Source of the DNA: Gilliamella sp. wkB108
GTDB lineage: Bacteria > Pseudomonadota > Gammaproteobacteria > Enterobacterales > Orbaceae
Length of the DNA stretch: 64,000 nt
Direction: 5' to 3'
Assembly (NCBI RefSeq): GCF_001690195.1
Contig: NZ_LZGM01000015.1
Coordinates: forward strand, 1 to 64,000
Shown: positions 3,867 to 52,155 of the stretch, one piece after another
How the letters are laid out: every line of letters starts with the position of its first letter
Position numbering within the stretch: the stretch's first letter is position 1
Notes under the pieces: generated by a model
The model's database searches: none
What the model was told of the DNA's origin: nothing
Seen by the model: the letters and a program-made list of their open reading frames with translations, nothing else
Program-made: the position numbers and the translations under genes

Positions 3867-3960
3867 GCGACCTATTCTGTTTTTTAACACTCGTATGGTG
3901 TATAGATTTTGCTTTAATAGCCATTTATATAGCGATACGAACAAACTTTAGAGGCTTATT

Positions 3961-31060: not shown

Positions 31061-31106
31061 TATTAAAACTCATCGTAAAGTTAATTGTTATTTTTAATAA
31101 TTTGTC

Positions 31107-31140
31107 AAAATGTTTCAGGTTAGGTATACGTTTTAGTATA
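31107..31140 (-). repeat. Dispersed 34-nt motif, copy a (upstream of ibaG)
   Basis: Read on the minus strand it contains TATACTAAAACGTATA (a TATAC/GTATA inverted repeat with a 6-nt centre) followed by ACCTGAAAC. It lies 14 nt after the mlaB stop and 46 nt before the ibaG start. Near-identical copies occur at 39935-39968 and 51868-51901, with a variant at 35461-35494. Confidence 0.75.
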
Positions 31141-32088: not shown

Positions 32089-32799
32089 TTACTCTTCGCT
32101 AGTGTCTTGGTTTTTGTCTTCGTTTTTGTCTTGGTTTTTATCTTCGTTTATGTCTTGGTTTTTGTCTTCGTTTATGTCTTGGTTTATGTCTTCGTTTTTG
32201 TCTTGATTTATGTCTTGGTTTTTATCTTCGTTTTTGTCTTTGTCTTTATCTTTATCAGATGAACCACCTACGCTGTAAAGGAATTGACCAATTAAATCCT
32301 CTATAACCATAGCTGGTTTGGTATTATTTATCACAAAACCTTCTTGGAAATAAGGAGGTTTATCGGTATCTTTCGATGTTGTGTTTTTTGCACCTTCTGG
32401 CGCATCAAGCTGATCAAGTTCTAATTCTGTACCTTGATCAAGTCCAAAGTTGACATCAATAAATTGTTCACCTAATAAGCCAGATGTTTTTATTGAAAGA
32501 GAACTGGAACTTGGGATTTTATCATATTGTGTATCGATATCCATTGTTACATAGGGTTTGTAAATCGCATTATCTGATGATTTTAATGTAATATCACTGA
32601 CACGACCAATTACCACACCACCAATTTTGATAGGTGAGCGTGCTTTTAATCCACCAATATTATCAAATACTGCATAAACGCGGTAAGAGTTATGACTTAT
32701 AAATGATGTTGGATCGGTAACTCTAAAACATAAAAATAGTACCGAACAAATAACCAGTACCATAAATAACCCAACAGTAATTTCAACTTTACGACTCAT
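32089..32799 (-). CDS. mlaD: MCE-domain phospholipid transport protein MlaD with long repeat tail
   Basis: A 236-residue protein: one N-terminal membrane helix (about residues 6-24), an MCE domain (about 35-120, with AVFDNIGGLKARSPIKIGGVVIGRV and SGLLGEQFIDV), then the C-terminal helical region. MlaD forms a periplasmic hexamer that passes lipids between MlaC and the MlaFE core. The last 54 or so residues are a charged tetrapeptide repeat, D-(K/I)-N-(E/Q), about eleven times; the E. coli protein (183 residues) has no such tail. GAGG lies 9 nt before the ATG at 32799, which I prefer to a TTG at 32814. Confidence 0.93.
   Translation of the reverse strand: MSRKVEITVGLFMVLVICSVLFLCFRVTDPTSFISHNSYRVYAVFDNIGGLKARSPIKIGGVVIGRVSDITLKSSDNAIYKPYVTMDIDTQYDKIPSSSSLSIKTSGLLGEQFIDVNFGLDQGTELELDQLDAPEGAKNTTSKDTDKPPYFQEGFVINNTKPAMVIEDLIGQFLYSVGGSSDKDKDKDKNEDKNQDINQDKNEDINQDINEDKNQDINEDKNQDKNEDKNQDTSEE
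32104..32250 (-). repeat. 12-bp tandem repeat inside mlaD
   Basis: On the minus strand the unit is close to GACAAAAACSAA, repeated about eleven to twelve times and encoding D-K/I-N-E/Q. Units differ mainly by AAA/ATA (Lys/Ile) and GAA/CAA (Glu/Gln). Because 12 is a multiple of 3, gain or loss of units changes tail length without a frameshift. Confidence 0.85.
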
Positions 32800-34405: not shown

Positions 34406-34563
34406 AATGATTTCCTACACTACTTAATTTAAAATTGCGCTCATTTTACTTGATAATTATAAATAATGAAATCTATTAAAGAGATTGTCTCTGTGTGTTA
34501 TCTGTTTTGTTGGATATTTTACGCTTGAATTCAAGTACTAAGTGCGAATCTTAACTAAAATAA

Positions 34564-35455
34564 AGATGACAAATAATTTAGCCTTTTATTAACTCGATTT
34601 GCACTTAGAGGTTGAGTGTAGCCGTTTTAATAAGTTTAAACGGTATAGACTCATGAATTATTTTTACCAATCAGCTGACCTGCATAGGCAAACAACAGCA
34701 CAACTTACCACAATGTATATTAAATAGAAGATGACAGATAATTTAGCCTTTTATTAACTCGATTTGCACTTAGAGGTTGAGTGTAGCCGTTTTGATAAGT
34801 TTAAACGGTATAGACTCCTGAATTATTTTTACAAATCTGCTGACCTGAATAGGTCAAACAGTAGTACAACTTACTGCAATGTACATTAAATAGAAGATGA
34901 CAGATAATTAAGCCTTTTATTAACTCGATTTGCACTCAGAGGTTGAATGTAGCCGTTTTAATAAGTTTAAACGGTATAGACTCCTGAATTATTTTTACCA
35001 ATCGGCTGACCAGCATAGGTCAAACAGTAGTACAACTTACTGCAATGTATATTAAATAGAAGGCGACAAATAATTTAGCCTTTTACTAATTTAATTCGCA
35101 TTCAAAGGGTGAGTTGTAGCCGTTTTGATAAGATTAAACGGTATAGACTCCTGAATTATTTTTACAAATCGGCTGACATGCATAGGTCAAACAGTAGTAC
35201 AACTTACCGCAATGTACATTAAATAGAAGATGACAGATAATTAAGCCTTTTACTAACTTGATTCGCACTCAGAGGTTGAGTGTAGCCGTTTTAATAAGTT
35301 TAAACGGTATAGACTCCTGAATTATTTTTACCAATCGGCTGACCTGCATAGGCGAAACAGTAGTACAACTTACCACAATGTACATTAAATAAAAGGCGAC
35401 AAATAATCTAACCTTTTACTAACTTGATTCGCACTCAGAGGTTGAATTCAGTACG
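34564..35455. repeat. Non-coding tandem array of ~166-bp units upstream of the mla operon
   Basis: Five full units start at 34564, 34729, 34895, 35061 and 35228; a sixth, partial unit starts at 35394 and diverges near 35455. Spacing is 165-167 bp. Units are highly similar but not identical and adjoin directly, without unique spacers. Each has an invariant CCGTTT...AAACGG inverted repeat and a weaker TGACCT...AGGTCA one. A 166-bp period shifts reading frame, and no long frame runs through. Each unit also holds TTTAAACGG-TATAGACTC, resembling the dispersed 34-nt motif. The array fills most of the mlaF-metI gap. Its function is unknown. Confidence 0.92.
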
Positions 35456-35460
35456 GTTTT

Positions 35461-35494
35461 TATACTTAAACATATAGCTGACCTGAAACTTCTT
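35461..35494 (+). repeat. Dispersed 34-nt motif, variant copy d (end of the tandem array)
   Basis: On the plus strand it reads TATACTTAAACATATA, then GCTGACCTGAAACTTCTT, differing from copy c by only a few bases. It lies 6 nt after the partial sixth array unit and is not directly upstream of a gene in the same orientation. It links the array and the dispersed motif. Confidence 0.7.
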
Positions 35495-35618
35495 GTTAAT
35501 TAGCTCAATCTTATGCGTTAACACAAACCTGACGAGTATTAATTATAAATGGTCAGGTTTGGAAAAGAGGTTATTAATAGGCTAGTTAGGATAATTATCC
35601 TGTTTGATCCTAGCTTAA

Positions 35619-39908: not shown

Positions 39909-39934
39909 AATAAAAACTCATTAAATTAATTGTA

Positions 39935-39968
39935 AAGATGTTTCAGGTCTGTTATACGTTTTAGTATA
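39935..39968 (-). repeat. Dispersed 34-nt motif, copy b (upstream of the rhodanese gene)
   Basis: On the minus strand it reads TATACTAAAACGTATA, then ACAG and ACCTGAAACATCTT. It is 26 nt upstream of the rhodanese ATG and matches copies a and c across nearly all positions. Confidence 0.75.
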
Positions 39969-51782: not shown

Positions 51783-52155
51783 TGATATTACCTCATCAAT
51801 AAAAAAAACCTCTACCATTGTAGTTCCTTCAAAATAGCTTGCAAGCGTTAAAACGATTTATTTTGTTAAGAAGTTTCAGGTTAGCTATACGTTTTAGTAT
51901 AATTTATCTCTGGAATAACAAATTTGTAATCGCGTTGAAGGTTTTTTAATTCAATAGTTATTTTGTTGTTACTCATTAGCATATTTCGAATTGATTCAAT
52001 CTTTATATCTTATTTGAGCATAATACAGGTAGATCGTGGTGTTAGCGCTATTTGCTAATAGGATAAGCAGGTAATTTATGATACAATTAACAAAATCTTT
52101 TTTCACCAATATTGATAGACAAACAGCATTTAAAATCAATCAATAAGGAATTAAT
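51783..52155. other. Divergent gmhA-ribH intergenic region
   Basis: It holds the copy c motif (51868-51901) and a small TTAGC/GCTAA dyad (52042-52058). I looked for an FMN riboswitch upstream of ribH and saw none of its conserved blocks. No small gene is evident. Confidence 0.4.
51868..51901 (-). repeat. Dispersed 34-nt motif, copy c (upstream of gmhA)
   Basis: On the minus strand it reads TATACTAAAACGTATA, then GCTAACCTGAAACTTCTT. It lies 85 nt upstream of the gmhA ATG. It is the copy most similar to variant d at the end of the tandem array. Confidence 0.75.

What the first reader, a model, noticed from the sequence alone, without database searches (positions are those of the whole stretch)
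34564..35455. Non-coding tandem array of ~166-bp units upstream of the mla operon
Five complete units and part of a sixth lie head to tail at 165-167-bp spacing. The sequence is strongly conserved between units, with scattered substitutions, so the array is either maintained or homogenised. It is not a CRISPR (no unique spacers), not coding (the period breaks frame) and not a known enterobacterial repeat such as REP or ERIC that I can recognise. It could be a run of small RNA genes, a cluster of protein-binding sites, or a selfish repeat.
Basis: partly seen in the sequence, partly recalled or inferred. Interest (0 to 1): 0.72.

Follow-up and report, generated by a model that had tools for sequence, protein, structure and literature searches.

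The report
Amplified genome-wide DNA recognition site
The repeats next to the mla genes look like a local pile-up of a short DNA "address label" that occurs about two hundred times in the genome of this bee-gut bacterium and is spelled differently in related species, as if a fast-changing protein reads it.

Summary
The array is real (34558-35445, period 166 bp, 5.4 copies), non-coding and without Rfam match. It is not unique. Each unit carries one 31-bp core (type B; 87 copies in this Gilliamella genome). A sister core (type A; 109 copies) occurs singly three times in this window and, decayed, at the array's right edge. Cores stand alone in unrelated flanks and in tandem arrays of many periods; 9 of 11 long-period arrays in 461 kb carry them (stretches partly chosen for arrays). 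Type A sites stay in place between species: at 7 places held for other reasons the half-sites are 96 and 91% identical, the centre 47%, flanks 73%. G040 has another spelling (type C) at 3 of 4 such places; G048 has none. Orientation to genes is random; no covariation; no Y1 transposase. No relative shows the mla array (29 loci), but five carry type A there. Best reading: local amplification of a recognition site for an unidentified, fast-evolving DNA-binding factor. Nearest in function: DNA uptake sequences; in build: Neisseria NIME/dRS3 arrays. Some defining features of each were tested and not met, so I file it under neither.

The parts
34558..35455 (+). tandem array, 166-bp units, 5.4 copies (TRF end 35445)
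34638..34668 (+). type B core, unit 1 (one substitution inside; last base C)
34803..34833 (+). type B core, unit 2
34969..34999 (+). type B core, unit 3
35136..35166 (+). type B core, unit 4
35302..35332 (+). type B core, unit 5
35468..35498 (+). decayed type A core at the right edge of the array; the same place has a type A site in G020, G002, G005, G007, G012 and a diverged one in G023
34524..34560 (-). inverted copy of the upstream motif U at the left edge; the same left edge occurs at the C83 array
35414..35451 (+). last copy of motif U with its upstream part, 36 bp before the type A core; TACG at 34520-34523 and 35452-35455 could be a target-site duplication
   Evidence: and reading
31103..31133 (-). 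single type A site upstream of a BolA/IbaG-like gene (name recalled)
39931..39961 (-). single type A site between pepN and glpE (names recalled); followed through 30 genomes
51864..51894 (-). single type A site

Best explanation
The array is a local tandem amplification of a dispersed DNA recognition site. Shown: the type A site is a directional, bipartite sequence (left half TTTATACTNAAACGTA, free centre of about 5-9 bp, right half CCTSAAACTTTTTNACA); type B is a diverged sister. A and B together have about 200 copies at roughly a hundred places in this genome, almost all intergenic where tested. Type A keeps its place and half-sites between related species while centre and flanks diverge, and it is spelled differently in other species of the genus. 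Arrays of the site differ in copy number between close strains. Shown by absence: it does not follow transcription. Inferred: an unidentified DNA-binding factor reads it on double-stranded DNA and the sites follow its changing specificity; arrays arise when a segment holding one site and its flanks is duplicated in tandem and then expands or contracts by recombination or slippage. The most likely role I can name is a self-recognition signal that works like a DNA uptake sequence (about 0.3); the factor and the role are not shown.
For: Discrete family: in 461 kb of G000, 41 type A sites at 0-6 mismatches of 33 positions, 1 at 7-8, none up to 9 in one Markov shuffle of 6 of the 21 stretches. Constraint, free of choice for the site: 7 of 7 places of G000 held for other reasons have the site seen in G003, G020 or CAMLPV; 9 pairs there give 96.3% left half, 90.8% right half, 46.7% centre, 73% flanks. 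pepN-glpE place, found by its coding flanks, 8 A-clade genomes: left 100%, right 84.7%, centre 50.7%, flanks 66-67%. Dialects: at 3 of 4 A places compared, an unchosen 200-kb stretch of G040 has type C, and type C 12-mers rank first in that stretch. No relation to genes: tandem-context sites same/opposite 7/7 and 15/15. Arrays: 9 of 11 long-period arrays carry cores. Copy number 4 vs 2 between G019 and G009.
Against: No binding protein identified, no experiment. Density is about one copy per 13-16 kb, far below known uptake sequences, and 1 of 22 (G000) and 0 of 55 (G003, G020) type A clusters lie in an ORF. Near-consensus sites lean to one replication strand, 59 of 85, which uptake sequences do not. 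G048 has no such family in 200 kb and nothing recognisable at both A places compared (6 comparisons). At the mla place only 6 of 24 syntenic relatives keep a recognisable site. In the four nearest genomes the pepN-glpE right half (87.3%) is no better kept than the DNA downstream (88.8%). ComEC is in 34 of 35 genomes, G048 included, so it does not discriminate.
Confidence: 0.65

Rival explanations
1. A selfish mosaic element of NIME/dRS3 or BIME kind: the core is a target for a recombinase or transposase that moves and multiplies units, and the site has no use for the host.
For: Arrays mix U, A and B modules; units of the same 166-bp type sit in four arrays at three loci groups, C15, C83 and two on C102; the window array has inverted U ends and a possible 4-bp target duplication; B cores lie beside orphan cdiA-like cassettes, and silent FhaB cassettes and dRS3 arrays are both described in Neisseria (PMC3898611, passages). 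Site presence varies between species.
Against: Type A sites are inherited in place and constrained. Y1 transposase in 1 of 35 genus genomes, not in G000. No exact core in viral contigs, no unit match in phages or plasmids. The half-sites are not inverted repeats (inspection). C83 shows no target duplication.
Confidence: 0.2
2. A polar chromosome site read by a replication, segregation or fork-trap protein.
For: Near-consensus type A sites lie on the lagging strand in 59 of 85 clusters over three single-contig genomes (25/35, 12/18, 22/32), against 55 of 108 for sites with 2-3 mismatches; replichores were set from gene-corrected GC skew of 20 sampled stretches per genome.
Against: The three genomes are related and share sites, so counts are not independent. 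I saw the lean before setting the arcs. The mismatch count of G012 includes the centre (pattern), that of G002 and G007 does not. Type B gave 6 versus 8 clusters in G012 by eye. Fast change of spelling is unlike KOPS or Ter (recalled).
Confidence: 0.12
3. A run of small RNA genes or a cis-regulatory cluster for mla or metNI.
For: One unit folds better than shuffles on the + strand (z -2.47; minus strand z -1.34).
Against: Chance-level promoters and no terminators; 1 of 35 pairs with a two-sided change; no Rfam match; array absent in 29 relatives; core orientation random to genes.
Confidence: 0.03

Closest known systems
DNA uptake sequences (DUS of Neisseriaceae, USS of Pasteurellaceae)
   Same: Dispersed over-represented signal; species dialects (PMC3630211, passages); AT-rich segments 3' of the recognition part, as in USS (PMC1626085, passages); ComEC present.
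   Different: More than ten times rarer, much longer, almost all intergenic where tested, a modest replication-strand lean; no uptake data.
Neisserial intergenic mosaic elements (dRS3 + RS arrays)
   Same: Short repeats with a free centre in intergenic arrays of some hundred bp (PMC3898611, passages).
   Different: dRS3 has 6-bp inverted ends and is a phage integration target; here half-sites are not inverted repeats and no phage carrier was found; type A positions are kept between species.
REP/BIME elements with RAYT transposase (features recalled)
   Same: Hundreds of short intergenic copies, type A near gene 3' ends, clusters with other modules.
   Different: No conserved palindrome in the core and no Y1 transposase in G000.

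Membership tests
DUS/USS | about one copy per kb | tested here: not met
   109 A (148 with a looser pattern) and 87 B in 3.08 Mb; 8 C in 200 kb of G040; benchmark in PMC1626085 passages
DUS/USS | dominant over-represented k-mer of the genome | tested here: inconclusive
   top 12-mers of the G000 and G009 stretches (partly or wholly chosen for the sites) and of an unchosen G040 stretch; absent in unchosen G048
[quoted passage not shown]
   59 of 85 near-consensus, 55 of 108 degenerate; benchmark in PMC1626085 and PMC1939737 passages
DUS/USS | competence machinery present | tested here: inconclusive
   ComEC PF03772 in 34 of 35 genus genomes, also in motif-free G048; no other competence gene searched
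DUS/USS | biased uptake of DNA carrying the sequence | not testable with these tools
   needs experiment
REP/BIME | RAYT (Y1 transposase) in the genome | tested here: not met
   PF01797 in 1 of 35 genomes, not in G000
REP/BIME | conserved palindromic hairpin | tested here: not met
   type A holds only TATAC..GTATA; type B none in the conserved 31 bp (by inspection)
NIME/dRS3 | inverted terminal repeats around a free centre | tested here: not met
   free centre yes, half-sites not inverted (by inspection)
NIME/dRS3 | intergenic arrays of varied units | tested here: met
NIME/dRS3 | target of phage integration | tested here: inconclusive
   no carrier in viral contigs by exact core, none in phages by one unit; no prophage boundary examined
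CRISPR array | unique spacers between identical repeats | tested here: not met
   the whole 166-bp unit repeats
small RNA family in Rfam | match to a covariance model at gathering score | tested here: not met

The most novel reading that the evidence does not exclude
Gilliamella carries a genus-wide self-recognition code: a long bipartite DNA signal, read by an unknown fast-evolving protein, whose spelling changes in concert at the same places between species and which is piled up in arrays. It would be the first uptake- or partition-like signal known to me in Orbaceae, of a build unlike DUS or USS.
Probability: 0.3. Interest if true: 0.82.

Novelty: new variant of a known kind. Interest (0 to 1): 0.62.

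Why it matters
If the site is an uptake or recognition signal, Gilliamella species would exchange DNA through species-specific labels, which bears on how bee-gut strains diversify and on how to engineer them. Concerted change of a long site at fixed places would let one study how a DNA-binding protein and its many sites change together. The arrays are possible strain markers, because copy number varied in the pair compared.

Tried and rejected
Promoter: read backwards, type A holds TTGTAA, 17 bp, TATACG, but the last -10 base does not fit and gene orientation is random. Terminator: no hairpin of its own, though at some places type A follows a gene's terminator (by eye). IS200/605 or RAYT: the core ends in TTTAC, but Y1 transposase is absent from G000. 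IS insertion into the core: one IS3-like case in G009 (L313); its end occurs nowhere else in the loci I held. RNA structure. Plain MITE for the window array: inverted ends and TACG repeats fit, C83 does not.

Literature: searches listed no paper on such a Gilliamella repeat, but only 8-20 titles were shown of 56, 1679, 4670, 117, 3268 and 384 papers; passages of five papers were seen, none whole. The library misses most subscription journals.

Biases told. (1) The logos were drawn from copies found by patterns that fix the inner positions (CGTATA..CCTGAAAC for A; CGGTATA..TCCTGAAT for B), so those positions are full by construction; only the outer borders are free information, and some B flank positions reach 1.1 bits because arrays share units. 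(2) G000 loci L147-L176 and L031-L055, the G003 and G020 loci and the G009 and G019 stretches were fetched for their sites, so the full counts (18 of 18 query sites at 12 G000 places; 19 pairs: 97.7, 58.9, 95.0% against flanks 78-79%) lean towards presence. (3) G000 stretches were partly chosen for arrays; the rest (window, C15, C49) has 4 of 5 long-period arrays with cores, and C49 itself was taken because it had arrays. (4) One search used a G002 replichore border set by eye (27 of 32); with skew-set arcs gives 22 of 32, the figure used. (5) One search scanned the mla loci for type B only, at 21 of 28 or better: 28 of 29 had none, one (L124) had a 21 of 28 match that by coordinates is its pepN-glpE site; type A there was read by eye in the 24 loci with metI. 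(6) Handles of some loci were set by hand from listings. (7) In one search one row (L032:5455-5620) was out of phase and left out. (8) Places per genome (75 type A places in the 100 of 109 rows listed; 34 type B places; some coincide) were counted by hand.

Full report
The observation. The array at 34558-35445 has period 166 and 5.4 copies; core spacings are 165-167 bp. It lies between metI and mlaF, both on the minus strand. The longest ORF inside has 44 aa; there is no Rfam match, no promoter excess and no terminator-like site.

It is one of many. A search of the same genome (G000, 3.08 Mb, 129 contigs; genus Gilliamella by the named relatives) with one unit gave 83 matches. Units of the 166-bp type also stand on C83 and twice on C102. 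Most other matches share about 30 bp. One search counts 87 copies of this type B core (up to 3 mismatches; reversed control 0). Type A was noticed because the right edge of the array matches a sequence at the same place in relatives without the array. It has 109 copies in G000 at up to 3 mismatches (control 0), and three single sites in this window. By hand count these make roughly a hundred places.

The site. Type A reads TTTATACTNAAACGTATAGYTAACCTGAAACATCTTTACA, type B AAACGGTATAGACTCCTGAATWWTTTTTACA (26 and 24 de-duplicated copies; the inner positions were fixed by the search pattern, the outer ones not). A scan without that pattern shows a discrete family: 41 type A sites at 0-6 mismatches in 461 kb, one at 7-8, none in the shuffle up to 9. 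Elsewhere the centre varies: ACGGTATA-NNN-TCCTGAAT in G009 and G019, AAACGTA-N7-CCTSAAAC in G002, G007 and G012. A motif U (CACTTAGNNNTTGAATTCA) stands 35-37 bp before many A and B cores of G000 arrays.

Arrays. Cores sit in arrays of 108-109, 117, 142, 166, 182, about 220-246, 264 and 283 bp. Of 11 arrays with period 50 or more in 461 kb, 9 carry cores, about one or two per unit (choice of stretches told under Tried and rejected). In unchosen stretches of G048 two long-period arrays without cores were found, in G040 none. Between G019 and G009 (aligned pieces 86-98% identical) one 245-bp array has 4 cores against 2, and a 182-bp one at least 3 (contig end) against 2. Type B arrays often end in a type A core on their 3' side; in the window it is the decayed copy at 35468-35498.

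History at this locus. metI lies beside mlaF in 24 of 29 fetched relatives. No relative has the array. G020, G002, G005, G007 and G012 have a type A site at the place and G023 a diverged one; perfect copies are listed for G012 and G002. So an old A site was probably there first, and the B array was added beside it in this lineage. The other 18 syntenic relatives show no site that I recognise.

Constraint. At 7 places of G000 that I held for other reasons, the site seen in G003, G020 or CAMLPV is present in all 7; nine pairs there give 96.3% (left half), 46.7% (centre), 90.8% (right half) and 73% (flanks). At the pepN-glpE place, found by its coding flanks, eight A-clade genomes give 100, 50.7 and 84.7% against 66-67% in the rest of the spacer; over all 30 genomes 59, 34 and 74% against 47 and 60%; in the four nearest the right half is no better kept than the DNA downstream.

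Dialects. In the first 200 kb of G040 a third core, TCAAAAACCCCGYTCCTCAACTTTTTTT, has 8 copies and the top-ranked 12-mers. At 3 of 4 A places compared, G040 has type C. At pepN-glpE the 30 genomes show several spellings, C-like in G040, G006, G018, G043 and G045; in G048, G013, G042, G014, G049, G022, G044 and G046 the sequence is so far off that only a remnant can be claimed. G048 shows no such family in 200 kb. The type A pattern occurs in 21 of 44 family genomes, all of this genus, none of 9 from other genera; the type B pattern in 20 of 40 relatives, none of 16 from other families. An exact type A pattern over the 84,980-species collection gave 71 stretches, all titled Gilliamella.

What it is not. 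Orientation to flanking genes is balanced for type A (same/opposite 7/7 in G000, 15/15 in G003+G020) and not far from it for B in G009 (4/8) and C in G040 (2/4). Type A lies nearer gene 3' ends than random intergenic points (median 39-50 bp against 134-192); type B in G009 does not (230 against 241). This speaks against promoter, terminator and RNA roles. Y1 transposase is in 1 of 35 genomes, not in G000. The unit was not found in plasmid or phage collections, nor the exact cores in viral contigs.

How it may work. Inference: a DNA-level recognition site whose reader changes specificity between species. Uptake-sequence-like self recognition is the nearest analogue, with dialects and a T-rich 3' part, but density and near-absence from genes do not fit, and near-consensus sites lean to the lagging strand (59 of 85; degenerate 55 of 108; related genomes), which uptake sequences do not (PMC1626085 and PMC1939737, passages). 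A mosaic element of NIME type explains arrays but not the constraint. I therefore file it under no known family.

Noticed in passing
window 32103-32252: 12/24-bp coding repeat giving DKN(E/Q)D-rich runs at the C-terminus of the mlaD-like gene (name recalled).
   Followed up: no
window 3892-3955: L31 ribosomal protein leader (RF03157), the only Rfam match of the window at gathering score.
   Followed up: no
L044 (G000:C79), L045, L052: Type B cores stand at the 5' edge of repeated orphan cdiA-like cassettes with VENN-type pretoxin regions and presumed immunity genes (names recalled).
   Followed up: partly
L342 about 11227; L225, L235, L244, L257, L270: An A-like site near the start of a lolC-like gene is kept in several species, also in G009 and G019 where A is otherwise rare (gene name recalled).
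   Followed up: partly
   Followed up: partly
L046 1143-1980, L309 5148-5958: Two type B cores 810 bp apart flank one small ORF in G000; the same spacing recurs in G009 and G019.
   Followed up: no
window 34520-34523 and 35452-35455: TACG on both sides of the inverted U ends of the array, a possible target-site duplication; not seen at C83.
   Followed up: partly
G009 stretches: Over-represented 12-mers that join to what looks like a type I-F CRISPR repeat (type recalled).
   Followed up: no
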